This document shows, in pieces, positions 13,417 to 54,861 of a DNA stretch of 64,000 nt. The DNA is from Heterotrichella gracilis (taxonomy: Eukaryota; Sar; Xanthophyceae; Tribonematales; Xanthonemataceae). The stretch's first letter is position 1, and each line of letters begins with the position of its first letter. A program made the position numbers and the translations under genes. The notes under the pieces are model-generated. The model was not told the DNA's origin, searched no databases, and saw only the letters and a program-made list of their open reading frames with translations. The stretch covers positions 1 to 64,000 of the forward strand of contig JAULBX010003444.1 in NCBI GenBank assembly GCA_032358255.1, given 5' to 3'.

Positions 13417-16068
13417 TCACTCCTCCCCGTGTTGCTGCAGCACCTGGATGATGTCCCATGTGGAGGGGCGGGTGCGTGCGTCGGGGCGTGTGCACATGGC
13501 GATCAGCTCGTCAATGTCCTGGGGGCACTCCTCGGGGACCCTGCAGCGGGACACCAACATTCGCGGGGCACATCTGCACAACAAGCAGCTGGTCCATGCT
13601 GTGCTTGGACCCATGACTATATGGTATGCCATTACACTCTCCCATCCACCACCATCACCCTGCGCTCCTCCTCTTGCAAAGGAAGCCATCCCGCCGCCCC
13701 CCTCTCCCCCCCCCCCCTTCCTCTCCACACACACACAGCAGTACCGCCCTTGCGAGGCATTCCATGAACCCTCAATAGGAGATATGTACAACATATCTAT
13801 ACAATCACCACCCTGCGCACCTCCTCTTGCGCCGCATGCGCTTTGACGGCGACTCCCCCGTCGCCAGCTCCCACAGCACCACCCCAAAGCTGTAGATATC
13901 GGCCTTCTCGTTCACCCTGTGGTTGCCGCCGATCAGGATCTCGGGGGCCGCCCACGACAGGGTCATGCCCTCGGGGCGGCTCACGTAGGTGGCCTGCAGG
14001 GGCGGGGGCGGGGATGGGTGGGCAACAGGTGGGTTAACAGACACACCAGGAAGTCTGGTCCCGCAAAGTGCCGCTGTATGAGGTTTGGAGGAAGTGGACT
14101 GAGCTGCCCGAGCCCAATGCAATCCCTGGCCCGCTGAATTGCTTGCCAATTGCATGCATGCACTCCCCCAAGACAGCTAGATAAGCAGTCCACCTTCCGT
14201 CCTGTTCTGGCACTGATCACACTGATCATTGGTCTTGCCTGGCATAACGTCCTGGGTTGGCCCATGGGCATGAGTCTCCCTGCCCCCTTTACTCCTTGTA
14301 CAGCATCAAGTACCATGCATTTTCATACACCCACCTGCTTGAATTTTGCAAACCCCACGTCCGCCACCTTGCCATGGCCTCCAGCCAGCAGGATGTTTGC
14401 ACTCTTGATGTCAAAGTGCACGATGCGCTTCACGGTGTGCAGGAAGTGGAGGCCCATGGCCACGTCAAGCGCAACATAGCGGCCCCTGCATGGAGCAACA
14501 GAACAAGGATTGAACACCCGCCGCAGTTCACGTTCGCAGTTCAGCACTTGCACAACAATGGCTATTGCATTGTACTGGTATCACTTTTCATAACGTTCTG
14601 CCCAGGTTGTGCATGCAATTACGAAGTCCAGCAAAGATGCATATAACATTTCCTCAACCAGAGCCTGACCCATTTTTTTGAGAAATGCAGACATACACCT
14701 ATTCGTCGCCTCAACTCTGTAATGTCCATTGAGTAACAGGTGCCAGGGCCACCCAAATGACAGGCACTGCCCTGCATAATCCCTCGACGGGGGCTTTCAG
14801 CCACCAACCAAACTTTTTATCATTGCAGCCGCCAGATGCACCCCACACCATTGCATCTAAGTAGCACACGCTGCCCCTACCCTGGCATGGCTATGCCTCC
14901 ACCCCTGGTGTGTGCCTCACCTGTTATACCACCGGTACTTGTCGGCGGTGCGCAGCGCATGGAACAGGTCGCCCTCAGGCATGTACTCCGACACAATCAT
15001 GAGCTCGTTCTGCGGGTTGATGGTGGCGCCGATGAATGTGACGATGTTGGGGTCCCTGCACCCGCGCAGTATCTCCACCTCCCGCAGGAAGTAGTTGAGC
15101 TGCTCCTGGGAGTGCGCGGGGGCCATCACCTTGACCGCCACGCGCCGCGCACCCTGCAGGCGTGCAAGGTAAACCACCCCGCATGCCCCTTTCCCCAGCC
15201 GCATGGGCTCCCCCGCCCCATCCTGCTCCAGCTTGATGCTGTCCTCAGACAGGCCCCAGTCAAAGTCGGCGGGCAGGACCAGCTGGGGCCGCTCGTAGCT
15301 GGACACGGCTTCCAGGGGCTCGCTGCCTGTGGCGTTCCACTCATACAGGTCAAGGCCAAGCTGATCGTGGGCGCCAGCGGTGTATGCGCGGTTGGCGAGG
15401 TCGCGCGCAAGGTTGCGCTCCTTTGTGGGAACCACCTGGCCTTCGCTGTCGCCCGACCAGCTGAACATGGTGGACTGGGACTCAAACCGAAAAGTCTCCT
15501 CGTCTGTCGCAGGTTTGTGGGGTACTTGGTCGGTGTCCCACCCCTTGGCGCCAGGCGGGGCGGGGCTGGGTGCACCCTCCACCGCATGGGTAGGCAGGTG
15601 CTCGGTGGTGGCGCCCACATGGTGCACGTCACGGGCACTGGCGGTGGCGGTCAACGTGGCCGCTGGGCTGTTCTTTTGGCTGCTGTTGGCCCCTGCTGCT
15701 GTGCTGTCTTGCGCGTGCAGCAGCTCCAAGGCTTGCTGGCGCGTGCTGGTTGCTGGTGTCGGGTCAGAGCTGCCTGGCTCCTCCGGTGCATCCTCTGCCT
15801 GGTTGAGCAGGTGTGAGGAGGCGGAGGAGAAGACCTCAGAGGGGAAACACTGCTCCTGGGGCTCGGTGGCGGGACCCACATCTGCGCTGTCAGCGCCGCT
15901 GCCGTTGACAATCACAGCTGTTTCCCTGTGCGTGCTTGTGCTGCTTTCATGGTCCTTGGCGCTCAGTAGGCGGGCAGGCACTGGGGTGGAGCTGGCCTCC
16001 GCACCGCCTGGCTGCTGCTTACAATCCCCTGCTTCGCTGGCTGAGCTCTTGCTGCTGCAGCTGCCCAT
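13417..16068 (-). CDS. N-myristoylated TKL-type protein kinase
   Basis: Four exons close in phase: 16068-14921, 14485-14335, 13993-13821 and 13540-13417, giving 531 residues. The start MGSCSSKSS places Gly2 and Cys4 for myristoylation and palmitoylation, so the kinase is probably held on a membrane; an in-frame ATG at 16116 lies upstream but would bury this signal. Residues about 10-285 are low-complexity Ser/Ala/Pro/Glu. The kinase domain starts near 290: [15 protein letters not shown], catalytic Lys313 in VAVKVM, a Glu in LREVEIL, gatekeeper region [14 protein letters not shown]406-F-D408 with K410 and N413, D425-V-G, WAAPE (ending at 451) and [22 protein letters not shown] makes it a non-RD kinase and DVG replaces DFG; both variants are known in plant and algal TKL kinases and the Asp is kept, so activity is expected. 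Partner and substrate unknown. Confidence 0.9.
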
Positions 16069-17334
16069 GGCGTCACCACCTGCAGCAGTGGGGCACACAG
16101 TGAGGGGCTGCAGCACACCACCACCGCCCTGCTCCTTGGAGCCCCATGCACTAGGTGGGCAGGGCCCTGCTAGGCCCTTTTGTCCTGTGGACTACAACCT
16201 CCCAAGGCACCTTCACATGGACCCCTTGTCTAGTGTCCCCCCTTGTCTACTGCACAAACAGCTCAATGAGCGCTTGGCAGGCCACTGGAAAAGATACCTC
16301 AAGCTCGATATGCACCCTGCACCCCAGCTGGCCATCTGGCCTCCTGTGCAACCCCTATGCGCATGTGTCACACCTGTGGCACTCGCTCACTGGCGATGTC
16401 AGCGGTGGGCAGACGCCAGGCAACAAGGTGGTTAACGCTCACGACCCTGACGCGAACTAGCGAGGACGGGACGGGAGCAAGCAAAGGAGGTAGGCGAGCA
16501 TGCCACCAGACAACTGCATGCGGACAACCCAACCTCTTAAGACGCTTCTTAGTGCGCAAGTACAGCACCAAGAGGTATGTGCGTGCTAAACGCTGCATGG
16601 GAGCGTGGGTTTGCCAAAAAGCGTTGCCATGTAGGTCACCGTGAACAAGCATGTTGATGCCCCCCTCACACTACCATTACTAGACAGGGTGGGGCTCGGC
16701 GCAGTACAGCGAAGCAACCACAGTATCACGGCTACCAACGACTGCTGGCTCACCTGGCAACCACAAATAACTCTCCTACAGGTGACAAATAGGCCCAGCC
16801 CATGCTCAGGTTGAAGTCATGGTGCGCGTGTCGCAAAGTGCACGGAGGGCAGCGGGTTGCATCGGGCGGCAGGATGACCTCTTTTCTGCTAGCATAGAAC
16901 AGTGGCACATACGCTTGGAAGGCTTTCTCTGGAGGGTCTGGAAGCACCTTCGCACCTTGGCCTTTATCACTGTTTATCGGTCGATGGGTTTTTGTCACAG
17001 TGCGCCAGCTGGCGCGTGTCCAGGCCTGCCGGGCGCGCCCGGACGGGCCGCGGTCTTCCTGCAGGGCCTCGATGGGCGACAGATATTTGGGCGACCCTCA
17101 ATTGAAGCAAGCGCCAAACTGTGGTTGTTAGTTTTATTTTGCTGGATTCTGGGGCTGACAGGCGGGACTACCAACGAAGAAGGCAGGTATACGTATGCGT
17201 GTGTACACATGGTCACCACATGCATGCATGCCACTGGGCACCAAGAACCCGTCCTGCCGCACACTTTTTTGCATATTTTATCAGCTTTGCTAACTCTTCT
17301 GTGCTTTGTAGACCAACCGAGCATTGTTTGGGAG
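16069..17334. other. Spacer upstream of the kinase
   Basis: It should hold the kinase promoter and 5' leader. A plus-strand open frame runs through 16819-17493, but its first 170 codons show no domain; only its end, from ATG 17335, looks protein-like. Confidence 0.4.
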
Positions 17335-20637: not shown

Positions 20638-23600
20638 TCATGGGCTGGCCTTGAGCGAGTCCACCATGTCCACCACCGAGATGATGAAGATTGACGACAG
20701 CGCCAGCACAACCACGCCTGCCAGCGCCAGCGGCCCGTTGCGGTCGTCGATGTACGATGCCTGCTTCTTGGCGATCTGCGAGCTGCGCCACAGGAACACC
20801 AGCAGCGCGTACAGGCACATGAGCACGGCCACGGGCAGGAGGATCATGGCGATGATCTCCACGTAGTTCTGGACACCCTGCACAGGGGATGACGGGGCAC
20901 GGCAGGGTCAGGAAGGGTGCTAATCACAGCTGGGAGTGCTGTTCAATGCCCACACATAATGCGCAGTTATGCGCGCGCGCTGGGAGTGACCCAAAGCACA
21001 GCAACACAGGCTATTCACAAAACCAGGCTACAACCTCAACCAGGCTACCACCACTACACACATGCCAGCGATCCAGCCCACTGCAGCCACGCCCCCCTCC
21101 CATTCCCACTCACCGGGTGCGGGTCCGTAGCCCTGTGTGCCGCCCCTGCGAACCCCACCAGCGCCGCCGCGATTGAGCCGATGGTGACCGCCATGTGCAG
21201 CCACGACAAGAAGGTGCGCTCGTTGGCGAAGAAGGTCTTCGGCTCCAGCTTCATGGCGGTGGTGGCCAGGCCGCGGCGAGCAAACTCGGGGCGGTGCAGG
21301 AACCACCAATAGAAGAAGCCCTTGCGCTCGCCATGGTCGTCTGTGGGGTGAGGGTGTGTGGGGGTTAAGCTTCTAGAGGGGATCATGTATGCACCACCTT
21401 GCTGCCCCCTACATGGCTGGCAGGCAGATCAGCTGCAGTAGGTTGGAAGCCGAGGCAGCTATGCAGCAACCCTAGTGGTACACTGCAGTGATGGCCCTCT
21501 TGATCTCAGGACCAACAGGTTCCAAATTCAGCCAATTGTCTGACTCCCTCCTCCTTCCGCCCCCCACTCACCCTCCCTTTCTCGGATGAGCTGCAGCGTG
21601 GGCTGGTCCCCCAGCAGCGGGTGCGTAAGCTCCTCCAAACCAGCGGCGGCGCGGCGGCGGGGCTTGGCTTGGCGGGGCAGGGGGGTCAGGCCGCCGCCGT
21701 TGATGGCCTCACTGCGGGAAAGGGTTGGGGATGTATCTTACGCAGACAAGAAAGACTTCCAATCACAGGCTTCCACCCAAACGTGGTTACAGACTGGTGA
21801 CGAGGTTTTGCCTTAGTTGCGCTTTCTGCTTCATCATGGGGAGGCGGGCGGCAGCTGAGGACCATACGCTCAGGAAGGCGTGCAACTGCGCATGCAGGGT
21901 CAGTGAAATGCCCATGGTACATCAGACCCAGTGCTGATGTGCATGCCTGTAACCCCTCGCCGCCTGTGCCCCACCTGGGAGTGCGCTGCTCCGGCGACGA
22001 CATGAGCATGGAGTTGCGCACCGACTCGTCGTCCACCCAGTAGGGCACCGCCTGCACCATGTCTGGCAGCAGCGTGCAGGTGCCGTGGATGAACTTTGAG
22101 AACTTGTGCACCTCGGTGAGCATGCCGCTGTCTATGAGCTCCTTCACCCACACGGGCGCCTGCATGCCCTCGGGGAGGGACAGCTTCACCTCCAGCACGG
22201 CGTGGGGGAAGCGGGTGATCTCGGTGCGCGGCACGGGCAGGGAGGGGTCACGGTACCACCTGCAGGGAAGAGCGTGGGGTGCTGGACATCAGGGGGAGGT
22301 TGTGGTGTGCGCACGCACAGCAAAGGGGGGCGGTAGGGGCCGGGGGGTCTCTGATGTCAAGCATTGCACCCCTGCCAAGCTTTGTGAACACCAGGCAGCC
22401 TGCAGGCGCGCACTGCCATCACCCCCTGTTTTAGGGTTTGGGGTTCATGGTAATTAAGGGCAAGAAGTCTGTACATCAGTCTCATTTGGTGCATGCGGCG
22501 ATGCTTGTCCCGCACCTCCCCGATTGCGTGCACGTGGGTCCATCATCCGGGTTCTCCTTAATCATGACCAGGTTGGTGTCCAGCGAGATGCGCACGGTTG
22601 CGTCAAAGGGGATCTGGAAGGCGGTGCGCATGTACTGCGTGCGGATCATGGGGCGCAGCTGCTTGCTGTCAATCTGCTGCTGGATCTCGCGGAACAGCGC
22701 GCTGAACTTCTCAATCTCAGACTCGGGCTTGCCCTAGGGGAACAGAGGAGTGGGTGAGCCATGCAGGTGACCACATGGCGGCCACAGCATGTGTGGGCAT
22801 TGGAAGCTAAGGCTAGGCATCAGATGCACCCATCTCACGGACAGGCAATGCACCGTGGTGGCCAGCGCTGCGCTGCTGCTGTGCAGACAATGATGCTGCC
22901 CACATGCACCCATAACCGGAGCACAGCAAGCCATGCACCCTCTCACAGCACAGCTGTAGCATTGCCAGCCACCACCGCAAGCTATTCCCCACCTTTGCCC
23001 TGAGCTCCGCCACCGCCGTGTCCACGGTGTACTCCCCCTCCAGGAAGGACACCACGCGGTCCTCGGGCAGCACAAACCGCTCCTTCACGCTCTCCTCGCC
23101 CTTCCAGCTCTCGCGGTGCGTCTTGCGCTCCACAAACACAATCTTGGGCTCCGGCCCGTACCAGCGCAGGCGCGCCGCAATGGCGTTTGGCCGCTTGTCC
23201 AGCCTGCCGTGGTACAGCTCCATGCTGCTGTTGTCCAGGTACACGCTGTTGATCAGCTGCGCGTCGCCGGCGGTGTCGTCCTGTGCAGGGAGGCTGGCTT
23301 GAGCGGGCGTTAGGGCGTTGGAAGGGGGTGCATGAAGCGGTACACCGCGCCGGGCTGCAGCATTGGGTTTGCACCATGCACTGGGGGTGCAGTGATGCTT
23401 ATTGCAGTGCCAAGCAGTCCATGGCATCCATGAAAACTTGGTGGCGCCCCAGTCCCAACCCACCAACCCACAGCAACGCCCGCCAGCAGCAACCGTGCAA
23501 TGCTCCACACCCTTCCAATCCCACGCTACCCACTCACCTTTGCGAACAGGAACACCGGCAGGTGCTGCAGCACCACCGACTTGACACTGGACGCGTCCTG

Positions 23601-25028
23601 TGTTTGCACCCAGTACTTCGTGGTTGAGCGCACAAAGCCCTGGGCGGAGTCCTCGTTCTTCTCGCCAGAGGTGTCGCCGCGCAGCACGCTGAACAGGTTG
23701 CTGAGCTTCACAAGCAGGTTGCTGTACTTGCCCTGCAAACGTGGGTGGGATGGTGACAGTGCCCAGCCAAGGGTGGGTATATGTGCCTAGCCAAAGGTGG
23801 GGTATATAACCCATAACAATAATAGGCATTACCAGCCGGCATCGGCTTATTGCCTTATTGCTTATGCCCTGAATACTAGTCCCTCTTGACAGCAGCGGTG
23901 CACCATACTGTTCTTTACAACCTGCAGTGGTATGCGCCTGAGACTTGAGACAGCACTTTAGGCACGTGACCTGCCCGTAAAGAGGGCAGTGCCTCACAAT
24001 GAGCGAGTGGTCCCGTGCCAGAATCGTACCTGCACCCACTCCTGGTTGTGCAGGTGGGCTATGTAGAACTGGCGGATGGGTGCGTGGGGGAGCATCTTGT
24101 CGTGCTTCTTCAGGATCTTGTGGAAACCCTGCACAGGTCATTATGGAAAGGGTCAGCAGGAAGGGCCAGTAGGCCATACCCCACCAAGCCAGGCAATCAG
24201 GTCATCCAAGTGCACAGCCACCAGCCCTGCCCCACCCCCCTCCCTCACACCCCCTGCACCTCACCATGTAGTTGAGGTTCACGTACTTCTCCAGCCCCAG
24301 GTACTCGTCACTGATCTGCTTGGCCTCCTGCAGGAGGGGCCAGGTGTGTGTGTCGTGAGTAGAGCACATGTGGGCATGGGTTTTGCAACCAAGCAGCAGC
24401 AAGGAGCTACAGGTCACGGCGCCACACCGAGTCTATGCGGGTTAGGGGGTCCCCAAAGGAGTATTGGTGTGGTTTCAGAGCATGCAGCCCCTGCTGCAGC
24501 CACCGCACCCACCTCCAACAGTTGCGGCCTCTTCCTCCCCTCCTTGTCCTTGGCCACCTCCCCCTCTATGCGGTCCATGCGGTCCTGCAGGCTGCGCACC
24601 TCCTTCTTGGTGAAGGTGTCAACCTTAGTCACCTGGGGGGGGGGGGGGGGGGGGGGGGGGGCCGGGGCGGGGGGGGGGGTCAAGGGAGTGGGTGGAGGGT
24701 GTGTGTGGGCGGAGATTGGTTAGCCAAGGGGGTGACACTGCGTGTGACTTCCACTGCTTTGAGCAGGGTTAGTGCCCATTGCATATGCATGCACTACACG
24801 TGCCTCTGACTGCAGCATCTTGAAGAACTGCTCCTCTGCCGCATCCTGCTTGTCCGCCCCACGCTGCACAGACAGACTGGTGGTCCTTGGTGAGAAGCTT
24901 ATCGCCCCCCCCGCCTTGTCCGCCTCCTCCACCGCCACCTTGATGAGGTCCTTCAGCCGCTTGTAGTCCAGGTACTCAGCCTTCCATTCGGGCCGCAGGT
25001 TCTCATCGAGGTACTTGCCGAACTTCAT
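20638..25028 (-). CDS. VTC4: Polyphosphate polymerase VTC4 (SPX - polymerase - VTC1-like membrane domain)
   Basis: Catalytic subunit of the vacuolar transporter chaperone complex. It makes inorganic polyphosphate from ATP and passes it into the acidocalcisome or vacuole lumen. Eleven exons close in phase: 25028-24798, 24632-24513, 24327-24265, 24128-24030, 23732-23538, 23280-22993, 22733-22534, 22259-21975, 21711-21572, 21340-21114 and 20877-20638, giving 695 residues (yeast Vtc4 is 721). The SPX domain spans about 1-165: MKFGKYLDENLRPEWKAEYL and GFHKILKKHDK, the inositol-pyrophosphate-binding lysines. The tunnel polymerase core spans about 190-495: K210 in TTKYWV, R273 and R275 in RLRWYG, VERKTHRESWKGEE, the metal Glu422 in VLEVKL, and KFSKFIHGTC. 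The C-terminal membrane module from about 570 has FFANERTFLSWLHMAV and three helices. SPX control implies phosphate sensing. VTC1 lies divergently upstream. Confidence 0.96.
24635..24683. repeat. Poly-G tract (poly-C at a VTC4 splice acceptor)
   Basis: A run of about 27 G, then CC, GGGG, C and a further G run. On the VTC4 strand it is a pure C polypyrimidine tract ending directly at the AG before exon 2 (24632). It is length-unstable by nature and able to form a G-quadruplex on the plus strand. Confidence 0.85.
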
Positions 25029-29032: not shown

Positions 29033-38480
<9,448 letters not shown>

Positions 38481-39978: not shown

Positions 39979-42193
39979 ATGTCCAAGCCCGGTCAACAAC
40001 CGCCCTACGCTGGGTACTCGCCACAAGGTGAGCACAGCTAGCACATGCCAGGTTTTGCTGGTGTGATGGTGTATGTCCCACCCCCGCTCGCGACCTAGTT
40101 GGTGCTTACCACCACTGCTACTCATGTGCTGACCAACCCCACCCCACTACCACAGGCGGGCCACCACCGGGTGCCTACCCCCAGCAGCCATACCCGCAGC
40201 AGGCATATGCGCCACAGCCGTACCCCCAGCAGCCCTACCCCCAGCAGGCCTATAACCCCTACCCACCCACCCAGCAGCCCTATGGCGCCCAGCCCTATGG
40301 CGCCCAGCCCCCAGACAGCCAGCCCTACGGCGCACGCCCACCAGTGGCTCCCAAGCCACCGGGAGCACCCGCAGGTATGCAGCGCCAAGCATATGCATGG
40401 CATGCCAGGGGCCATAGTATGAATCATTCCTGCACGCCACGCTATAGCTATATCCGCAGGCGCCCAACCTCTCTCAACACCTTTAGGCTATGACCTGTGT
40501 TGCCTCTTACACCCTCTTCTTTAGTATTCCCCCTGGTTACACCCTAATTTACCCCCTCTCCCTCAGGGTTTGACGGTTATGACCCCGAGGCCGCTGCTGC
40601 CGCCGCCTTTGCCTCTGGCTTCGCCGATGCCGCTGTGCGCAAGCGCTTTGTGCAGAAGGTGTTCAGCCTGGTGTTCCTCCAGGTGGCCATCACTGTGGGC
40701 ATAGGCCTGCTGTTCTTCTTCCAGGCAGACCTCAAGGTGGGGTGTAGGATGTTGGAAGTGAGGGGAGAACAGCACACGTGTGTGCAGCAGCAGTGCTGCT
40801 GCTTTGATGACTACCGCTGCGCGTGCTGTGGTCTGTGTGGGTGGGCACTGCACGCTTACACACAAATAGAAAGACATTCCCAGCCGTCATCTTATTGCCT
40901 TGTGTGCTGCACGCTTTCACCATGCATACTCTTGCCACGTGGGTCTCACTCTTTAGACCTGCCCCTCCCCTTTGTCACCTTTTCCCCCTTCCCTCGCAGC
41001 TGTACGTGCAGCAGAATCAGTGGCCCTTCTGGGCTGCCTGGGGCCTGTCCTTGGCGCTGCTGCTGGTGCTGGTGTGCGTGCCAGCTGTGCGCCGCCGCCA
41101 CCCGCAGAACCTCGTCGCGCTGTTTGCATTCACATTTGTGGAGGCGTTCCTGGTGGGCTGCATCACAGCCTACTGGGACCAGCAGGTGGGGGCTGGCGAA
41201 AGCCTACACTCTAGGCAGGCTCAGCAGACAGCACTGTCATATGTGCATGCACATGGCCATGACATGTGCACCTTGTTCCCTCCCGGATTGCATTATGGCT
41301 TCCTAGGCCAAGCGACAGGGGCGCACATGCACAGAGCAAGGGACGCTTGCGCATCCACAAGGTCAAACATACTCACTCCATCTGGGCTGCACACTGGGAT
41401 GGGCCAGTGCAGAGGCTCTACGAGTGCACAGCCTGCGCCTACACATCATGCACCCTCGGCGTTCCTCCAAGCATGTTGTTTATATCACTCCTTTTCAGGT
41501 GTGTCAACGCACAAATTGGGCTAGGTTGCAATGCCATGCACTTGCATAGATGCAGAGAACCATTCTTCTCCTTCAAGGTCACCCCTCACCCCCCCTTCCC
41601 CCCTTGCAGTATGTTGTGATCGCCTTCATCGCCACCGCCGCAGCTGTGTTTGGCATCACCGTTTTTGCAATATTTGCCCCCGTTGACGCCACCAAGTGGG
41701 GCTACGTGCTCATGGTCCTCTCAATGGTGTTCCTGGTGGGGATCATCATTGGATTTTTCTGGCACAACAGGGTACGTGTACACCCTCAGCACATGCAGGG
41801 GGTTACGGAGGAGTGCCCAGGTTTGCACATGTGCGCACGCCCGCGCACACATCCCTGCAGTATTTTATGCATTGGCCACGCCCGCCAGGGCCCATCAAAC
41901 ATGCAACCACCGCCCAAAGCGCCATTCTGCTGCACACGACACCAACATCCCACCCCACAGCGCCCCGCCTTTAGCACTCCACCTCCCCCCCGCAGATCCA
42001 GTACCTGGTCATCTCCTGCATTGGCGCCGCGCTGTTCTCCCTGTACCTGCTGTACGACATCCAGATGATCATGGGAGGCAAGTCCATGGAGACCTCCCCG
42101 GACGAGTACGTGTTTGCGGCGCTGCAGATCTACCTCGACGTCATCAATTTGTTCCTCATGATTTTGCAGATAGTGGGGCTGGCAAGCAATTGA
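39979..42193 (+). CDS. Lifeguard / TMBIM (BAX inhibitor-1 superfamily) protein
   Basis: Seven-helix protein of the TMBIM family. Animal and bacterial relatives leak Ca2+ from internal stores and limit cell death. Six exons close in phase: 39979-40027, 40156-40374, 40567-40736, 41000-41185, 41610-41771 and 41996-42193, giving 327 residues. Residues 1-90 form a cytosolic Pro/Tyr/Gln-rich arm of repeated YPQQ and YGAQP units, as in Lifeguard (LFG/GRINA-type) members. The membrane part begins after VRKRFVQKVFSLVFLQVAITVG and includes VEAFLVGCITAYWDQQ, ALFSLYLLYDIQMIMGG and the family end DEYVFAALQIYLDVINLFLMILQIVG. The conserved acidic residues of helices 6-7 (YDIQ, YLDVINLF), which gate Ca2+ in bacterial BsYetJ, are present. 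It lies divergent from the Ca2+ ATPase. Confidence 0.95.
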
Positions 42194-43191
42194 GGGGAAG
42201 GGGCGGTGGGCCAGGGACGTGAGATGAAGCATAATTTTATGTCTACGACTCACAGCTGCATCAAAAGCCGTCATTAATATACTGCTGTGTTTGGGGGATG
42301 GGTCAAGGCTGCGGCTGTGCCGAGGTGGGTGGTGGTAGTCCCAGCGGCACAGTGCCTGCATGGGGCAGGCAGCAGGGCCACTTTGAGGTCTGCGGCTGCG
42401 ACTGGAGGATACTATGATGTGGTGTTTTGCCTGGGATAGGGGCGTGCACATAGCGCTGTTTCCAGGCGACGCCACACTCTTGTCAATCCCATTTGCCTCA
42501 GGGAGCTTTTCCCAGCCATCATCGGCTTGTTGCCTGTTGTTGCGTTGTGTTCCCCTAGAGGGAGCAGTAAATGAGCAGCAACTAGTGATCTGTCATATTG
42601 TATCAGTGATAAGCTTTTGTACACTTGCAGCTCCCCATTTTTGCTCAATGACATTCATTGCCAATGATTAGCGGTCAGTGAATACTGTCGTCCACTGGAC
42701 TGGCTGTGAGATCTTGTGGACCGTCGACGAGCCATATGTGACATAGAACTTCTTCAAGAAAGAAAGAAAGGAAACGGTTGCCAGGCACAACACAGATATG
42801 TATACAGCGTTGGCATCTTGCTGAGCAGACTGCCTGAGTGCATGCACTGCGCTGACATCCCAAAATGCCAGTATGACTCATCGGATATGCCACACATATT
42901 CATACATTATCATATGATCGCAATCGCATGCCATGTATTACATTCAAAGTTTCCGAAACTTTGTCAAGAGTCTTGACAATGTCAAGCGGTTCAATGAAAT
43001 ACTGACACAGGTGTACACCCTGTATGATAGGCTAGCCTATAGATATGACACCCTTGCACGCGCTGGTCAACATTATCCACCCGACAAGAATTTCAAGAAA
43101 AAATGTGTCACACATGTACATAGTACGCTGCAGCTGCCGCTTATATCATCCCCCGGGATATGCACCACTGTCGTTTTGATGTATGGTTGAC
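42194..43191. other. Spacer after the Lifeguard gene
   Basis: It holds the Lifeguard 3' flank and that of the minus-strand RING-like paralog. A short AAAG run is present near 42758. No gene recognised. Confidence 0.5.
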
Positions 43192-44630: not shown

Positions 44631-46095
44631 GTTTGTCGAATAAACGCTTGGTCGACCTATAGAGCATTTGGATGAGTATTATACAGTATCTGCTGATATA
44701 GACTGCACTGCTGCTAGAATAACGAATGTTTCCCGGTGCATGCATGCATGTGGGTTGTGTGGGAACCATGTGGACATGCGGAGACGTGCCTGAAGCGGTG
44801 AAGGTGTATTTCCGCCTTGTTTAATAAACCGCCTTGTCCAGCAAAGCTCGTTACATTTGTGAAAGGTAACAGGCGCCTGCAGGCCTGACCCTTTATGCAC
44901 TGTCCTCGGCGTACTCGGGTTTACAACAACGAATATCGTTGGGATTAAGGAAAACTCCTGGGATTATCTTTTTCCCAATTGTCCCCTGCAGTGAAGAAAA
45001 AATCCATTCTAATTAGAGAAATGTTGTATTAGCAGATATCATGACAACTTAATGATTCATTTTCAAAAGGGAACCCTGAGCAATAAACTTCAAGCCTGGG
45101 TCATTGGTCCATATTACAAGAATAGACGGAGCTCAATAGTTCTGCCTACTAGGGTATTGGGGTTACCGTACTGTTGTCACAACGGTTGCCTAGGCGATAG
45201 TATTTAATAAATTGCAGTGCAAACAGAAACTTGCTTGAAGCGGCTTCCGTGATGCACTGATTGTGATAGGCATATCTATTCTAACTAGCTCTGTAGCAAA
45301 ATGTAATTACCTGGCTTCAAGCTGGGAGCAAGCACCTGCTAAATTACCGTCGGGCACTTGCAATCAACTGGTCTGAATAAACCGGAATATCACTATCATA
45401 ATGATTGACAAAAGTGGTTGTGCAGCAAGAGGGCAGTAAGTTGCCGCACGTGCATTACTTTGGCAACTAAGTAGCAAGTTGAGGTAAATATGCGACTCAA
45501 TAATTCACATCAACTGCAGTGCAACAAGTTTGCTCCTATGAGATATCATATTTTCAAAATGGTCCAGTGCTCACAGTCTGGTTGGAGACATTATCAATAG
45601 TAATTGCCATTAGTTGACTCATTTATACAGTGGTAGTATATTAATATACTACCAGCTGGGCGAAAGAGTGTCCTTCTGGTAGCAAAAACTGAAGGTCAGA
45701 AAACAAATTGTGCGGTCAAAAAAATGGAACGAATTTGAAGAAAAGACTGGAGAACATCGCGCACTCATTTATTCACACACCAGGACATTCGCACGGTACT
45801 CTATACTCGGTGGCATCATGCATATGGGATGGAAGAAGAACTGAAGATCTGTCACATGGGATAAAGAGCGCTATCTGCTGCTAATACAGCCGCTGGGCCC
45901 ACTTCCTTGCAGCAGGCTGATGAGCCCGTATTGGCTCCCTCATGACTGTCTCAAAATACTTGTAAATTGGAACTTTACGGGAAAGTGCTGCTATCAGCTG
46001 GCCATGCCGCTGTGGCCAAGCAGGCAGGGGCCATGTGCTGATCTTGAACCAGGCTGGGCCAGCCTGCGTACCCTGCTTGGGTGGCACTGCCCTGG
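44631..46095. other. AT-richer spacer
   Basis: No gene recognised. It is the longest GC-poor stretch of the window (about 44900-45870), with a TATTAATATA-rich patch near 45640. Confidence 0.5.
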
Positions 46096-47306
46096 TCAAA
46101 ATAGTGGAGGCGGTGATGGGGGGGCAGCGCGGGGCTTTGGTGGTGGCCGGGGTGGGCGTGGAGGTGGTCTGGGAGGGCGTGGGGGTGGTCTGGGAGGGGA
46201 GGGGGGTGGACCTGGCGGCCTAGGCGGTGGCTGTGGTGGTGGTGGCCGTGGTGGTGGCGTTGGAGGTGGTGGGAATGGTGGTGGCTTGGGTGGCGGTGGA
46301 GAGGGTCGAGGTTTTGGCGGGGGCCGTGGGGACGGTGGTGGCCGTGGCGAGGGTGGAGGTGGCCGTGGTGAAGGAGGCGGTCGTGGTGAGTGCGGAGGTG
46401 GGCGGGGCGGTAATGGCGGCGGCCGAGGTGATGATGGTGGTCGTGGTGGATTTGGAGGCGGGCGTGGAGGACGTGGGGATGCTGGGGGTGGGCGCGGGGG
46501 TGGGGGTGTTGGAGGTGGTGGTGGTGATGGGGAGGGTGGTGGTGGAGACGGGGAGGGTGGTGGTGGTGGTGGTGATGTTGGTGGTGGTGATGGAGAGGGT
46601 GGTGGTGGCGAGGGTGGTGGTGGTGATGGGGAGGGTGGTGGCAGAGGCGGTGGTGCCGGTGGTGGTAGTGGAGGTGGCGTGGGCGGTGGCGGCACAGGCG
46701 GGGGGCGTGGGTTGGGTGGAGGGCGTGGTGGTGGGCGTGGGTGAGGTGGTGGGCGTGGGTTGGGTGGTGGGCGGGGACTGGGTGGCGGTGGGCGTGGTGG
46801 TGGTGGAGGCCTGGGGCTAGGTGGTGGGGGCCGGGGACTAGGAGGGGGCCTGGGGCTAGGTGGAGGGGGGCGGGGACTGAGTGGTGGGCGGGGAGAGGGC
46901 CTTGGTGGTGGATTGGGGGGAGGAGAGGGAGGAGGGGGAGGGCCTGGCAATGGCGGTGGTGGTCGGTCCGGTGGTGGGGGATTAGGTGAAGGGGGCGGTG
47001 GTGGTGGCGGATCTGGTGGTGGAGTGGGTGGTGGTGGCGGTGGTGATGGCGATGGTGGTGGGTTGGGTGGTGGTGGGGGTGATGGCGACGGTGGTGGTGC
47101 TGGTGGGTCTGGAGGAAACGGAGGCATAGGCGGGGAGGGCGGCAGTGGTGGCCCCGCCGGGCCAGAAGGGGACGGCCGCAGGCTGATGGTAGGTGGTGGG
47201 CGGGGTGGGGGGGGGGTGGGGCGGATCTTGGGTGGCGGTCGGGGTGGCCGGATGGGGCTGGGAGGCTTGACGGGTGGAGGGGAGGGTGGAGGTGTGGGCG
47301 GAAGCG
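46096..47306 (-). repeat. Proline-rich (PPPSPPP) coding repeat
   Basis: Last exon of the protease gene: 402 residues, mostly Pro with Ser, Arg, Asn and Thr, like the rod of algal pherophorins and extensins. The plus strand is GGTGGTGG-rich, which opens long false Gly- and Val-rich frames. The repeat should vary in length between strains. Confidence 0.85.
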
Positions 47307-50300
47307 CTGCAATGGGCACCAGAAGTATGCATCAGCACGACGGCACAAGCACCCATGTGGTGTTGCCCACCCCCCACCCACCAGGCAGGCACACACCATC
47401 ACTGTCCACTGCAGCCACATCCAACGCCAGCACCACCCACAGCCAGACATGGTAGCCCTGGCACTACACCACCACTGCACCAACATGACAGTAGCAGAAG
47501 ACCAGCGATACCTGACATAGCTGACTACACATGCGACTAGACCCAAGAGGACAATGAGCGAAGGCGCAGTACCAGGTACAGACATACAGACATACACCCA
47601 CAGTGGACGAGCAATGCGCCCCTCCCACTACCCCCACCCAGCACCACTCACCGCACATGTCCCCCAGCATCTGCACCGGCTCCGGGTACCCCTTAGCCAT
47701 GGTGGCCACAACGAAGGGCAACCCATCAGGGACGGGGCCGCACATGTGATTACCGGGGAGGAGGGTCAACAGCTGCGGGGTGGGGGGTGAGGGTGGGGCG
47801 GGATGTCAAAGTGGGAATTGTAGCTAGCAACGCCACGTGGCACCACTGCATTCGTGGCATCATGCGGCGGGGGAAAGGCGGCACATGCGGCGGGAGTAGT
47901 AAATATATATAAAGGACAAACCATGCAGCTGACAATGTGCAGGGTCTGCAACGTTAGCGCCCAGCAGCCGGTGCCAAGATTAAAAGGATAAAATAGGATA
48001 TATCACTATCGTATTACCCTTGCAGGTGGGCAGGCACTAAGGCACATACACCGCATGCCTCCTCAGAAAGAGGAAAACCCTCCCTCGTCCCCCCTGTCCA
48101 CTCACCCTGAGCCACCTGTACGCATACTTGTTCACCCACATCTGTGGCAGGGTCCCCACCAGCCTGTTGCCGTGCAGGTACAGGCGGGTGAGGTTGGACA
48201 GGTGGCTGCCATCGCCGCACCAGGCGGAGGGGAGCGGGCCTGCGGGGGAACAAGGCGACAGGTGTCAGCAGGCGCCAGGGGGGGGAGGCGTCAGTGTGTC
48301 GAAGAGTGGTTGCTTCTGGTGCAACCCCTTCCCCTGTCAGGCATGGTTAAGCCATGGCTTAGATTAGAGCACCCAGTGCAATGACCGCCTGCACCTAGAT
48401 GATGATTGCTTATGCTCCAAGCTTAGACAGGGGCGCCCAAACAGGCGCACACAAGCAGGTGAGCACACAATGAGGCGTGCGCAAACAGGGGCGCGGCGCA
48501 TCCCCTGTGAACACCTTCGGCGCCACACCCTCCTCCCTCACCTGTGATCATATTGTTCTCCAGGTGCATCTCAATCACGCTGTCCAGCCCGCCACCAGTG
48601 CCCCACATGTCAGGCAGGCTGCCGCTGAAGTTGTTCCCATTCAGCAGCAGCGTGGGCCCCGTGCGCACCCACACGCTCCCATCAGGCTCCATGTCCCCAT
48701 CCTCACCGGGGTCGCCAGGGCGGGAGGACCACTTTGGGAACATGCCAGGGAGGGAGCCCCAGGAATCAGGCAGGGGGCCTGTTGTTGGGGAGGGGGAGGG
48801 GGGCATGAGTATTCTGTGAAGGGTGGACCATGGATGTGGTTTGTGGGCAGTACTGCGATGCAGGTGTCTGAGCTGGGTGGGATGGGTGCTGCAGCAAGAA
48901 TGCGCAACTCATGATAGGCAAGTAAAAGCTGGGTGGTGAGGCCATCAAACAGTCTGCATCAAAGTGACAATATTACGATGTTTAGGGTTTAGGATTTACG
49001 GTGTCCACCACATGTCCATGACTCAAGGGCTCGCACCTGACAGCATGTTCCCGCTCACGTCAAAGGAAGACATGGCGGAAAACTGCGCGGTGCCCCACTC
49101 CGATGGCAGTGGCCCCTGCAGCATGTTGTCCGCCAGGCTGAAGTACCACACCTTGCTGGCCAGAACGGGCGAGGTGGACCAGCCAGGGGGGATGGTGCCT
49201 GCGCGGTAGGGGGTGGGTGAAAAAGAGGCCACATGGGCTGTGGCACAGACATGCTATATCGGATGGGTTTCTGTCACCTTTGCTACCCAAACTTTGCAAG
49301 AAATAGGTTTAGATAGTCAGACAGCACGTGATAGCGTAAGCCACCTGATGTGATCACATGGTATGTGACAAACGTCACAAGCCCCCAGCCCTTCACGACA
49401 GCATGTCGCTGTTGCCATGTTGCCAACTAATCCATTCTTTGAGTCATACGGTATGCCACATCCATCCAACTACGTGTGGAGTGGATGGCCACGACCCACG
49501 AGGCCCCTCTCACCTTTTAGCACCCCCCCCGTCCACCTGCAAAGATTCCTACCTACCTTGCAACTGCGATCCCGTGACCTCAAAATCCCCCAGGTTGGGC
49601 ACCCCGCCCCTGGCTCCAAACTCCTGCGGCAGCGTGCCCCCCAGCATGGCGCAGTCATACAGCAGCATGTAGCTGAGCGCGGGGAAGGCACCATCGTTGA
49701 GCCAGGCGCTGGGCAGCGGGCCCTGGATGCGCGTGGAGTGCAGGTCCAGCCACCACAGGGTGCTGGCGGGGTTGGCGAGGGAGGCGGGAAGGGAGCCTGC
49801 AGGGGGAGGCGGGGGCAGAAAGAGTCAGCAAAGGGTGGGTGATGGCGAGGAGGAGCTAGATGTGGCGCAGAATGGGGTGGATACACTGGCGCAGCAGTAA
49901 ATGCGGGCAGGAATGTGCTATGGATGGCATGTAACACAGTGATAACCTTGAATTGCAATGTCTGTGCAGCATTCCGGCCCCACCACCCACCTGTGAGCGC
50001 ATTTGTCGATGCATCGAACTGGTTGATCCTGTCCCACATTTTGGTGCCCCCCCACCCGCCAGGCAGGGGCCCGCTCACCCCTGACCGCGCCACGCCCCAC
50101 TCATGCAGGTTCACCATGGCGCCCTCCCCCACCTGGCCGGGCAGGGTGCCTGTGAGCCCCGGTGTGTCTGACAGGCGCAGCACCATGAGGCGGGAAAAGG
50201 AGGAGGGGCCGCTGAACCAGGAGGGGGGGATCACCGCGCCTGGTGGGGGGGAGGGGTGTCGTTGAATTGGGATGTATGCTAGTAAAACAGAATGCATCAG

Positions 50301-53300
50301 GTGGCACATGTGTGTGCGGTGGGACAGCATCCGTGGTTGGCTGACCCTACAACCCCTAGACCAGGCGCACTTCGCACTTAATGAACACCGCTGTTATTCT
50401 GATCATAATAAACATTTAGACACATAGATCTGTGGCGAGACATGCGGATGGAGGGCCTGGCACGTCCCAAAACTCAGTTCATGCCACATTTCACTTGACC
50501 AAACCAAGAAAAAGAGCAATCTTGACAGGAGCTCAGGATGCGCATGCACCGCTCGGTGCCTGTGCCAACAGCTACATGGCTGCAAGTTGTCTTTCAGCCC
50601 CCCTGGTCTGTCCCCTTACCTGTGAGTGGGTTGCCACCGAGGTCAAGGCTCTCCAGCAGTGGGCATGTGTCTGGCAGTGAGGGAGGCAGCGCCCCCACCA
50701 ACTTGTTGTCGTGAAGGGACAGCCCCCGGAGGTTGGGCCAGGTACTGGAGGGGGGGGAGGGGATAGCACCTGGCAGGAGCAGGGGGATTGTCATATTAGG
50801 AGCTGGGAGAAAGTGCGTCAGACTGCCTTGGCAGCAGGTGGCTATGGTTTGCGGGCTGAGGCGGGCTTTCATCATTATTATGTTATTATGTTATTCTTGG
50901 CGCCAGTGAACTGTTGTCAAGAACACAAGGAAGGAACATACTGGACACAGAAGGCAGGATTACGCAGGCAGGCTGGGCAAGCCTAGGCATGTCCATTTCA
51001 GAGGTTTGGTTCTGCCGCCTACCTGTGAGCTGGTTATAAGACAGCTCCAGTACCGTGAGCTCGGGCAGTGCCCCCGAGGCATACATGGAGGCGGGGATGC
51101 TGCCACGCAAGGCGTTGCCACTCAGGTCCCTGAAAAGCCAGGGGAGGGACAATGAGCCAGCAGGAAGCTTGGGTCCATGCATTGCCATATTGGCCAAGTG
51201 CCATGCCACTTAGACTACTGTTTATGCTTTCCTGGCAAGCCATGCTAACCATGAACATACGAGGCAATGCAGCAGCGAGGCCATCATGCACACAGGAGCA
51301 GCACAGACCAACAGCAAGAGCGTCAATGATGGGGAGGGGCCAGATGTTCCACACTTCCCCAGCCACTCACATCCAGTTCAGGCAGTGCAAGTTGGCCAGC
51401 TGCGGCGGAAGGGTGCCCATGAGCCCAAGGCCGCTGAGGTCACTGCAAGGGGGGAAAAGACAGGGTGAGAGGGCTGGTGACACGAGTTGGTGATTGCCAG
51501 CGCATGCCCAGACACTTGCGAAAATTGAGTGGAGATAGAAGGATGGTGCTGTGGTACTGACTAGCATGGGAGGTGAGCGGCGCTGTCGATGCAACATCAG
51601 GCAACATTCCATATGGTGAGGTAATTGCAACAGTACAGCAACCCCCTGCCTCTTACTCCACTCACAGGCCAATCACGATCCGCTGCGCATTGGCCACCAC
51701 CCCTCCCCACGTCCAGTAGTTGTTTCCCCCTGAGTTCCAATTGCTCGGCAGGTCCTGTTCTTGATCCATTGCCGCGTACAGGGCAATCATCACATTACGG
51801 TGCCCGCTCACGATGTTGGCAAAGCGTGTGGAGCATGCAGGGACAGGCAGGGGGGCGCCGGAGGCCAGCAGGGCGGCGCGATACACGTCAAGCTGGCCCT
51901 GCAGGGGAGGGAACCAAAAAGGGGCCGGAATTAGAACCAAAGATCCATGAGGCAGGGTCGGTGCAGCTGGGATGTGACAATCATACACCCAGCAAAGTGA
52001 CAGCCAATGTGCCGCAAACTCTCTGCCACATTTATCCGTTACAAGTCTTGCAACCTCCCCCCCGCCTCTCACCGCGTTGGTGTACTTGTTGCTGCCCAGG
52101 TAGGGCGTGGCTGAGGCAGTGATCATGGCTGCCACCTGGCTGTTGCTCAGCCCAGGGTTGACGGACAGCATCAGCGCCGCAGCCCCCGACACATGCGGCG
52201 TGGCCATGGATGTGCCCGCAAGGTACGCATAGGTGTCGCGGGGGACTGTGCTGAGGATGGTGGTCCCAGGGGCAGCGATGGACACGTACTTGGGCCTGGA
52301 AGAAACATGGCGGGGTTGCAATAAAGGGCAAGGGAGCAAAGGGTGCATGCCAGAATGCATATGCACATACACCAGGCGTCTATGACCAGTCCCTCAGGCC
52401 CCGCATGTCAGCTCTGCTTAAGTAGTCCCAGTCACAACGCATGGCCAATGCCACACGGGGTGGCACCAACCCCGTCTGCACCCCACCCATGCACGCCTGC
52501 CACACCCCAAGCAGCCTCACCCGTAGTTGGTGCTTTGGTCGCGCATGTTCCCCGGCATCAGCGAGGTGACCGCCATGACCCCGGGGATTGAGGCGGAGTA
52601 TGAGGCGGGGTACATGCGGTTGGACAGGTCGTTGTTCTTGCCCTCGTTGCCAGCGGCAAACACAAACAGCATGCCTGGGAGGAGGAAATGGGAGTTGATT
52701 GTGGACAGGATGTGGCGAATAGGGAGATTAGGTACTTTGTCAGAAAGTTAGTAATTTACATGCATTCCAGCAATACAGCCAGAATAGTGGTCAGACTTGC
52801 ACATGTGGCGCCACGCAGTTCTTTCCTGGCACTGTTTGTCCCACCTATAGATATTCACCCTGTTTATAATAAACCCCCTACTACGTCCAGCGGTGCATGT
52901 GCAATCCACAGCCCACAGCACTCAACGAGGTACATGACGCCACCGGCCCACAACCCATATGCATGACGTGGCCATGTACACCAACTGCAGCCCTGCCTCC
53001 CACTTCCCTGCCCGCAAAACCCATTCCCTCACCCTTGCTCGTCCCATTGTCCGCCGAGTGCGCTGCTATCACGTCCCGCTCCATGTCCGAGGTGAAATAG
53101 CCCCCGTAGGACCCTGAAACCACACGCGCACCCTGCGCCCTGCACCACGCGTAGCACTCAAAGATGTCCGAGTCGTCTGCGTCCCCGTTGTTGTCAAAGG
53201 CCTTGCAGTGCAGGAGCTGGACCTGCGGGGGGGGGGGGCTGGGGGGAGGAAATGAAGGGACAAAACCATTGTTTTAAGCTGTGTGTCCAATGATAACAGG

Positions 53301-54861
53301 ATGAGTTTAATACATCATCATGTGATGTAATGATACTTACTTATAAATCCTTGCAGCAGAGGATGGGTCAGCAGTGCATGGTAGGGGTGGGTGGGGACTG
53401 AGGTTGCCGGAACATGGGCATGCCATGGCCACACAGTGGCGCAGGTGCATGGGAGGCGCACAGGGCATGTGCGCATGGCAATAGCCCCATTGTTGGAGTG
53501 CTGGCGGGGTTTGGTGCGGTGCATGGGGGTGCCGGGGCATGGGGCAAGAAATAATATGCATGCTCACGTTGGATGGTCACATGCTGTACAACCAACACAA
53601 TACCCCGCTGCTGACCACCCACCTGCTGCGACACCCCCGATATGCCCACTCCATTGCTCCCCACCGCGCCGATGGTCCCCGCCACATGGGTGCCGTGCAC
53701 AAACACGTCCTCAATGTCCGTGGGGTCGAAAGGGCCACCCAAATCCCCCAGGGTACTAATCCCGGGGTTGCTTGCGTCCGTATTTCCCACCAGATCTGGG
53801 TGCTTCCAGTGACACCCCGTGTCCACCACACACACTTTCACAGACTTGGACCCGCCCCCCACCAGCGCCCACGCCTCCGGCGCCCGCGCATGGTACAGGC
53901 CCCACACATTGGCAATGCGAGGGTCGTTGGTGGGGGGGGCGGCCGAGGCAGCGGTGATGCGTTTGGAGTAGTTGGGGACGGCGCGCACAATGCCTGTGGG
54001 GGGTGGCGGGTGGGATCAAGCAGGGGTGATGCTGCCATGATGCATTGAGTGGGCATCCACAGATTACTGGGTTGGTGGGACAGTGTGCGCGTTGGTGGTT
54101 TGAAAGGCCTTGCAACAGGCTGCGGATGCATGTGGTCCAATGACCCAGAAATCACTGTGCATGCCAGGAGGGCGCAGTCATACATTGTAGTTGGCATAGA
54201 GGGTTGCATTGTGCGCATGCAAATGGGGGCGGGGGGCGCACCATCCGCTTCCGTGAGCTTCCTTGCCACCTCCTCCACATCCTGTCCCGGCGCCACCTCC
54301 ACCACCGCAAGCGGGGTGGTGGTGGACAGGGGGCGCGCGCCACGCAGGCCCTGGAGGGGAGGGGACAACGAGCGGGGTTGAGCAAGGGGGACAAGCTCAT
54401 CCCAGGGCCCAAGCCAGCAATGCTTCATCCCTGGTTTTTTGCAGCACAGACCATGTTCCACAGGCACATCCAGCGGCAACTGCACATGCCTGTAAATGCT
54501 TCAACCAAGATGTGCATGGCTCCGCGCATTACCCAGGCCCAGCCAATCCCCCCACCACCCATGCCGCCAATGCTCCACCCACCTTCACTCCCCCTATCGT
54601 CACCTTCCTCCCCCCCCTGCCTGCCGCCACCGCCACTCGGTGCGCAGCCCGGCTCTCAAACTGCACAATCACCGAGGTGGGCGCAGTTCCATCGCCAGGG
54701 TCCGTCTGACTGTCCTGGGGGTTGGTGGTGGGGTCTGGGGTGGTGGTGGATGGTGATGCGGCGGCTGGTGGAGGTCCCACCCCACCCAGCCCCAGCCCCA
54801 GCAGCACCACCACCAGCACCAGCCGGGGGGGCATCCTGCCCTCCCCTGGTCGCCGCCTCAT
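46096..54861 (-). CDS. Secreted subtilisin protease fused to leucine-rich repeats and a proline-rich tail
   Basis: Seventeen exons close in phase and give 1413 residues: 54861-54583, 54350-54242, 53993-53623, 53222-53033, 52674-52521, 52295-52073, 51898-51666, 51442-51371, 51129-51023, 50769-50620, 50239-49991, 49796-49557, 49198-49037, 48778-48542, 48239-48106, 47772-47652 and 47306-46096. Parts: signal peptide (RLVLVVVLLGLGLGGVG); inhibitor-I9-like propeptide (VIVQFESRA, AVVEVAPGQDVEEVARKL); peptidase S8 with Asp187 (VCVVDTG), His229 (HGTHVAGTIGA), oxyanion Asn326 (FAAGNEG) and Ser397 (GTSMATPHVSGAAAL); a short helical cap leading into LRRs from about 495 to 1010 (NLRGLSLHDNKLVGALPPSL, LTRLYLHGNRLVGTLP); and about 400 residues of PPPSPPP type. 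The triad is complete, so it should be active outside the cell, with the tail probably hydroxyproline-glycosylated and set in the wall. I know of no family with this order. Confidence 0.92.

What the first reader, a model, noticed from the sequence alone, without database searches (positions are those of the whole stretch)
46096..54861. A 1413-residue subtilisin-LRR-proline-rod fusion
Seen: 17 exons joining in phase into signal peptide, I9-like propeptide, S8 protease with intact Asp187/His229/Asn326/Ser397, about 500 residues of plant-type leucine-rich repeats, and a 400-residue PPPSPPP tail. Known separately: algal subtilases digest mother-cell walls (sporangin/hatching-enzyme type), LRRs recognise ligands, and Hyp-rich rods anchor in the wall. 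I know no described protein with all three in this order. Inferred: a wall-tethered protease with its own recognition module, for hatching, mating or defence.
Basis: partly seen in the sequence, partly recalled or inferred. Interest (0 to 1): 0.82.

Follow-up and report, generated by a model that had tools for sequence, protein, structure and literature searches.

The report
Subtilisin with LRR and proline tail
What looks like a green alga carries one gene that joins a protein-cutting enzyme, a binding domain and a long proline-rich rod; related genes in the same genome combine the same pieces differently, so this is probably known parts reshuffled into a wall-bound protease.

Summary
On the minus strand, 17 exons with GT-AG introns (54861-46096) join in phase into 1413 residues with one stop: hydrophobic leader, subtilase prodomain, S8 domain (Pfam 179-433, E 5.6e-49) with Asp187/His229/Asn326/Ser397, LRRs, and a 402-residue Pro/Ser/Arg tail. 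The key join is safe: exon 7 (51898-51666) encodes both the S8 C-terminus and a stretch that aligns with the start of the plant receptor GSO1's LRR ectodomain. The tail's frame is supported by codon-position variability.

The same genome has at least five loci with S8 followed by a Pro-rich stretch, and a tandem pair with a basic Pro-rich insert, S8 and LRRs. Bacterial S8-then-LRR proteins exist. The S8 tree rejects grouping the window with four of them (AU p 0.004); whether the window and the tandem pair share one origin is open (p 0.2).

Most likely a secreted, wall-bound subtilisin whose LRR selects substrate; function, secretion and transcripts untested. I found no published protein with this order. 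New variant of a known kind.

The parts
54583..54861 (-). exon 1 (aa 1-93): start codon, hydrophobic leader (about aa 10-32), start of prodomain
   Evidence: only hydrophobic stretch above 1.6 (Kyte-Doolittle, 19 residues) in the protein; no signal-peptide predictor was run
53956..54678 (-). subtilase prodomain, about aa 62-142, in exons 1-3 (coordinates worked out from the exon table)
   Evidence: PF22148 fervidolysin-type prodomain, E 0.0017, 19.1 bits, below the 21-bit cut-off
52100..53847 (-). S8 catalytic domain (aa 179-433), exons 3-6, with Asp187, His229, Asn326, Ser397
   Evidence: Pfam PF00082 E 5.6e-49; catalytic residues; genome hits on C37
51666..51898 (-). exon 7 (aa 443-519): C-terminal end of the protease and the start of the LRR ectodomain (N-cap) in one exon
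   Evidence: alignment to GSO1 6s6q from residue 487 on; BLASTP alignment across the join to P0142
47652..51442 (-). exons 8-16: leucine-rich repeats and C-terminal end of the LRR part (aa 520-1010); introns 9-14 all phase 1 at the same place in the repeat (LT|G type)
46096..47306 (-). exon 17: 402-residue Pro/Ser/Arg tail, ending in TGA

Best explanation
This is a single secreted protease of a green alga that works at the cell wall or extracellular matrix. The leader sends it out, the prodomain helps folding and is then removed, the bacterial-type subtilisin domain cuts, the LRR solenoid joined directly behind it binds a partner or substrate (an exosite), and the basic, presumably hydroxylated and glycosylated proline rod holds the enzyme in the wall by binding polyanionic or glycoprotein material. 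The cut is thus made locally on a chosen wall protein or extracellular peptide precursor. Shown: gene model, catalytic residues, order of modules, tail make-up, loci in the same genome with the same modules. Inferred: that the organism is a green alga, secretion, autoprocessing, hydroxylation, wall binding, LRR ligand, substrate.
For: Gene model in phase, 1413 aa; catalytic residues; S8 and LRR hits; join inside exon 7 with an LRR start aligning to GSO1 (that this is the N-cap of GSO1 is recalled). LRR introns 9-14 are phase 1 at one place in the repeat, and acceptors at that register occur in C76 and some other LRR loci of this genome, so the LRR looks like a recruited native module. Tail 274 P, 38 S, 37 R, 5 K against 3 D and 0 E. 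Pro-rich stretches recur beside S8 domains: after S8 in C117, C771, C295, C143b, C143c, before S8 in C76a and C76b, suggesting a general attachment module. LRR-extensins show that LRR plus Hyp-rich tail can mean ligand binding plus wall anchoring (PMC4477543, start of abstract in the listing; PMC11062476, passages).
Against: No transcript, protein, localisation or activity data. The tail lacks Tyr, so wall binding by charge or glycans is a guess. The LRR ligand is unknown. C76a ends at its LRR part, and only a weak Pro-rich stretch (14 P of 40) lies behind C76b, so a C-terminal rod is not needed in every S8-LRR gene. The leader may be a signal anchor rather than a cleaved signal peptide.
Confidence: 0.5

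Rival explanations
1. Released lytic enzyme: it digests the mother or gamete wall like sporangin, and the LRR and proline rod only give wall affinity before release.
For: Algal S8 proteases with a wall-lysis role are known (PMC8643629 and PMC6313938, passages); several loci with S8 followed by Pro-rich stretches in the genome.
Against: No stage data; sporangin sequence not compared.
Confidence: 0.2
2. Peptide-processing scaffold: the LRR captures a specific secreted peptide precursor and the fused subtilisin cuts it, an LRX-like sensor with its own maturase.
For: The LRR aligns with ligand-binding plant receptors (GSO1, FLS2, PEPR1); LRX proteins bind RALF peptides.
Against: No peptide or receptor partner is known here; the similarity is to the LRR class in general.
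Confidence: 0.12
3. Secreted defence or competition protease whose LRR recognises foreign surfaces.
For: S8-LRR proteins occur in bacteria too; several S8 loci in this genome (some hits are bacterial contaminants).
Against: No inducibility or diversity data; nothing in the sequence points to foreign targets.
Confidence: 0.1
4. Not one protein: the protease, the LRR part or the tail belong to separate transcripts joined on paper.
For: Retention of intron 7 gives a stop right after IVIGL (ORF 51662-52393); third-position GC of the tail (0.42) differs from the rest; no cDNA was available.
Against: Exon 7 holds the start of the LRR ectodomain, of little use without the LRRs; 16 in-phase introns; bacterial ORFs show S8 then LRR in one frame; the tail frame follows the splice.
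Confidence: 0.08

Closest known systems
C76a and C76b, tandem S8-LRR genes in the same genome (L049-L051)
   Same: S8 followed on the same strand by LRR exons with an LCGPxP end; LRR acceptors at the same phase-1 register; a basic Pro/Arg-rich segment
   Different: the Pro-rich segment lies before S8, not at the end; C76a ends at the LRR part. No full gene models were built.
Loci with S8 followed by a Pro-rich stretch: C117, C771, C295, C143b, C143c
   Same: S8 then Pro-rich; C295, C771 and C143a/b are nearest to the window in the S8 tree (93/84, not starred)
   Different: no LRR on the gene strand in the stretches scanned; one pattern match lies on the opposite strand of L057. Only in C117 are S8 and Pro-rich parts in one ORF.
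Saprospiraceae-type S8-LRR proteins (P0142, P0156, P0160, P0164; L059, L060)
   Same: S8 then LRRs in one ORF; P0142 aligns across the join
   Different: bacterial (L059, L060 named Saprospiraceae MAGs), no proline rod; grouping of these four proteins with the window rejected (AU p 0.004)
Land-plant LRR-extensins (LRX)
   Same: LRR followed by a Hyp-type tail (PMC4477543, listing)
   Different: S8 domain here; the tail has no Tyr and is Arg-rich
Chlamydomonas sporangin/VLE1
   Same: S8 protease of a green alga, linked to walls
   Different: reported type II membrane, PC7-like core (PMC6313938); the term LRR occurs 0 times in that paper and in PMC8643629
Chlamydomonas proteins with partial PKD2-like domains
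   Same: LRR is among the domains named and all but one of seven have poly(proline) regions (Figure S7 legend of PMC11015965)
   Different: no protease is named in that legend, and it does not say which protein has the LRR

Membership tests
Peptidase family S8 (subtilase) | S8 match over the Pfam cut-off | tested here: met
   167.4 bits, cut-off 21.8
Peptidase family S8 (subtilase) | catalytic Asp, His, Ser and oxyanion Asn | tested here: met
   D187, H229, N326, S397 in their motifs
Peptidase family S8 (subtilase) | proteolytic activity | not testable with these tools
   no assay
Plant-type extracellular LRR | LRR consensus repeats | tested here: met
   LRR_1 E 4.3e-20, LRR_8 E 8.7e-11; GSO1 best solved match, E 2.9e-63, all five stretches in the cap and LRR part
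Plant-type extracellular LRR | LRRNT_2-type N-cap (PF08263) | tested here: inconclusive
   aligns to the start of the GSO1 ectodomain, but PF08263 was not listed; the usual Cys pair (recalled) is absent
LRR-extensin (LRX) | LRR then Pro/Hyp-rich tail | tested here: met
   hydroxylation itself not testable
LRR-extensin (LRX) | Tyr cross-link motifs, found in some extensins (PMC4769139, start of abstract in the listing) | tested here: not met
   0 Tyr in 402 tail residues; not filed as LRX
Sporangin / VLE1 type | type II membrane protein with PC7-like core | tested here: inconclusive
   one hydrophobic stretch near aa 10-32, signal peptide or anchor not told apart; best solved S8 match deseasin MCP-01; sporangin sequence not compared
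Sporangin / VLE1 type | digests sporangial wall | not testable with these tools
   no assay

The most novel reading that the evidence does not exclude
A self-contained extracellular receptor-protease: the LRR captures a specific peptide precursor or wall protein, the fused subtilisin cuts it, and the basic proline rod fixes the reaction in the wall. Land plants split these jobs among subtilases, LRR receptors and LRR-extensins; here a green alga would have built them into one protein by exon shuffling, possibly twice in one genome.
Probability: 0.12. Interest if true: 0.75.

Novelty: new variant of a known kind. Interest (0 to 1): 0.45.

Why it matters
If the protein is made as predicted, one gene unites substrate recognition, cutting and wall attachment, and its relatives in the same genome show the pieces being swapped. 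That gives a natural series (S8 with Pro-rich stretch, Pro-rich insert with S8 and LRR, S8-LRR-proline) for testing what an LRR adds to a wall protease and how algae modify their walls or process extracellular peptides.

Tried and rejected
Rejected: transfer of the whole fusion from the tested bacterial S8-LRR proteins (16 introns; AU p 0.004 for window with P0142, P0156, P0160, P0164; the other bacterial S8-LRR rows were not tested this way). Rejected: the antisense Gly-rich or the His/Thr-rich frames over exon 17 (codon-position entropy).

Not settled: one or two origins of S8-LRR in this genome. Five groupings were tried: window+C76a+C76b not rejected (p 0.2); with C597 added not rejected (p 0.195); window+C295+C771+C143a+C143b already in the best tree (93/84, not starred); window+four bacterial rejected (p 0.004); nine algal-genome rows plus Tetraselmis P0107 not rejected (p 0.267). 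The groups were named after a first FastTree had been seen (window with C295/C771/C143a/b 0.994, sister to P0007/P0024 0.932; C76 with C597 0.912; C117 beside P0142 0.688), so the p values are weaker than they look. Paralog rows are fragments merged by profile column; C143c (54 of 305 columns) and P0143 did not reach the alignment. Of its 54 rows I dropped 15 before (C222, C448, C119, C331, C100b, P0127, P0175, P0218, P0009, P0005, P0013, P0012, P0003, P0004, P0008).

Led nowhere: naming the organism. Setting the S8 list beside the LRR lists by contig: besides C37 and C76, shared contigs were far apart or, for C100, bacterial-looking; this comparison was by eye. The nine literature searches listed no paper that I recognised as an S8-LRR-proline protein; the library lacks most subscription papers. 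Structure prediction was not tried: the tool takes window proteins that the DNA gives letter for letter, and this one is spliced.

Full report
What is there. The window is C37:1-64000 of a 68.5 Mb, 903-contig assembly held without a name. That it is a green alga is inferred: the named algal hits to its LRR part are mostly Trebouxiophyceae (Micractinium, Chlorella, Trebouxia, Botryococcus, Coccomyxa, Symbiochloris), with Gonium and a diatom also listed, and an eukaryotic S8 hit listed is from Tetraselmis (P0107, row 107 of 120 listed); the class labels are recalled. Pfam finds Peptidase_S8 at 179-433 (E 5.6e-49) and LRR models. Asp187, His229, Asn326 and Ser397 stand in VVDTG, HGTH, AGNEG and GTSMA.

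Leader and prodomain. The only strongly hydrophobic stretch lies near residues 10-32; by itself it does not tell a signal peptide from a signal anchor. The region before S8 matches the fervidolysin-type prodomain PF22148 just under its cut-off (19.1 against 21 bits); no I9 model was listed.

The S8-LRR join. Exon 7 (51898-51666) begins in the C-terminal part of the protease and ends in DQEQDLPSNWNSGGNNYWTWGGVVANAQRIVIG, which aligns with the start of the GSO1 ectodomain (6s6q residues 28 on). PF08263 itself was not listed for this stretch. An LRR start without LRRs would make little sense, so a protease-only product is unlikely as the main form, though retention of intron 7 would stop translation right after IVIGL. 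The bacterial-type protein P0142 aligns with residues 110-988 in one BLASTP stretch across the join (27% identity).

The LRR module. A strict pattern finds 15 repeats between 524 and 977. Introns 9 to 14 are all phase 1 and cut each repeat at the same place (LT|G, LT|G, LT|G, LQ|G, LS|G, IT|G). Acceptor-like sites at this register occur in C76a, C76b and some other LRR loci (for example L041, L044); part of the list is coding look-alikes, so only those with a pyrimidine tract count. Symmetric phase-1 exons suit exon shuffling; that the module came from the alga's own LRR stock is inference. An exon-by-exon LRR_8 scan of the genome (44 matches) listed neither this gene nor C76, so that list is not a census.

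The tail. Exon 17 gives 402 residues after the LRR part: 274 P, 38 S, 37 R, 5 K, 2 H, 3 D, no E and no Tyr. All three frames are long and open there, so openness proves nothing; but entropy is 1.08, 1.02 and 1.86 bits at positions 1, 2 and 3 of the spliced frame, and all four Pro codons are used (CCA 144, CCC 57, CCT 40, CCG 33). Third-position GC is 0.42, against 0.82-0.84 in S8 and LRR, so codon choice differs in this exon. Proline helices of Chlamydomonas mastigonemes are hydroxylated and O-glycosylated (PMC11015965, passages); the same is inferred here.

Same genome. A Pfam S8 search gave 39 matches, exon by exon and including contaminant contigs; the window's S8-to-first-LRR query gave 25, several of them the window's own exons. 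Where I read downstream, S8 is followed by a Pro-rich stretch in C117 (same ORF), C771, C295, C143b and C143c, and by a shorter one in C597. C76 holds two tandem genes with S8 followed on the same strand by LRR exons; C76a's LRR part ends ...LQQCA and a stop, and only a weak Pro-rich stretch (14 P of 40) lies behind C76b. Both have a Pro/Arg/Lys-rich insert just before S8 in one ORF, after what looks like the prodomain end. So the three kinds of module occur together in three genes here, in two orders. C143a runs off its contig. Except for C117, joins in the paralogs rest on order, strand and distance, not on full gene models.

Elsewhere. Of 2645 proteins with E <= 1e-10 in a search with residues 150-1010, 120 are listed, and 12 of these 120 carry both PF00082 and LRR models by my reading. 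In 10 of the 12 the GTSxx motif precedes the first LRR by pattern; P0127 and P0143 have LRRs before the likely catalytic one. A genome scan with P0156 gave 7 loci; 2 of 7 (L059, L060, both Saprospiraceae MAGs) hold an ORF with GTSxA followed by 12-13 LRR motifs. By my reading none of the 120 listed hits of a search with residues 715-1010 has PF00082. Of the 355 proteins fetched, 4 have at least 16 P in 40 residues, all with a GTSxA motif and no LRR by pattern: no listed LRR relative had such a tail, so LRR-proline outside this genome rests on papers only.

Tree. On 39 S8 rows and 299 columns the window groups with C295, C771, C143a and C143b (93/84, not starred). Grouping it with P0142, P0156, P0160 and P0164 is rejected (p 0.004); grouping it with C76a and C76b is not (p 0.2). 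One or two origins inside the alga remain open.

How it works, and what it is. The best reading is a secreted subtilisin with an LRR exosite and a basic proline rod that holds it in the wall. The parts work like a subtilase, an LRR receptor ectodomain and the tail of an LRR-extensin. Membership: S8 met; LRR met with the cap inconclusive; LRX not assigned, as the Tyr feature is missing and a protease is present; sporangin type inconclusive, since its sequence was not compared (reported topology and PC7-like core: PMC6313938; PMC8643629 calls sporangins bacterial-type).

Novelty. Nine searches of an open-licence library listed no S8-LRR-proline protein that I recognised. Each pair of modules is present or known: S8-LRR in bacteria and C76, S8 with Pro-rich stretches in paralogs, LRR-proline in LRX. 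Hence a new variant of a known kind.

Noticed in passing
L001 and L002 (G000:C100:85061-88846 and 62976-66749): Contig C100 looks bacterial (GC 0.42 and 0.35, long uninterrupted S8 ORFs), so the assembly seems to hold contaminant contigs; C100a groups with P0144/P0219 in the S8 tree (96/97, starred).
   Followed up: partly
L050:1388-2218 and L051 around 1772 (G000:C76): Basic Pro/Arg/Lys-rich insert just before S8 in both tandem S8-LRR genes, near where activation cleavage would be expected.
   Followed up: partly
window 14920-16191 (-), 21689-24201 (-), 31758-36464 (-), 40548-42219 (+): Neighbouring long ORFs resemble, by eye and from recall only, a protein kinase, a VTC-domain protein, a P-type ATPase and a BI-1/Lifeguard-like membrane protein; no family search was run.
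   Followed up: no
window 45845-46744 (+): A 299-aa Gly-rich ORF lies antisense to the proline exon; it mirrors the proline codons and needs no gene.
   Followed up: partly
G000:C76, S8 domains of C76a and C76b (L049-L051): The two S8 domains are 85% identical over 209 columns, which suggests a fairly recent tandem duplication.
   Followed up: no
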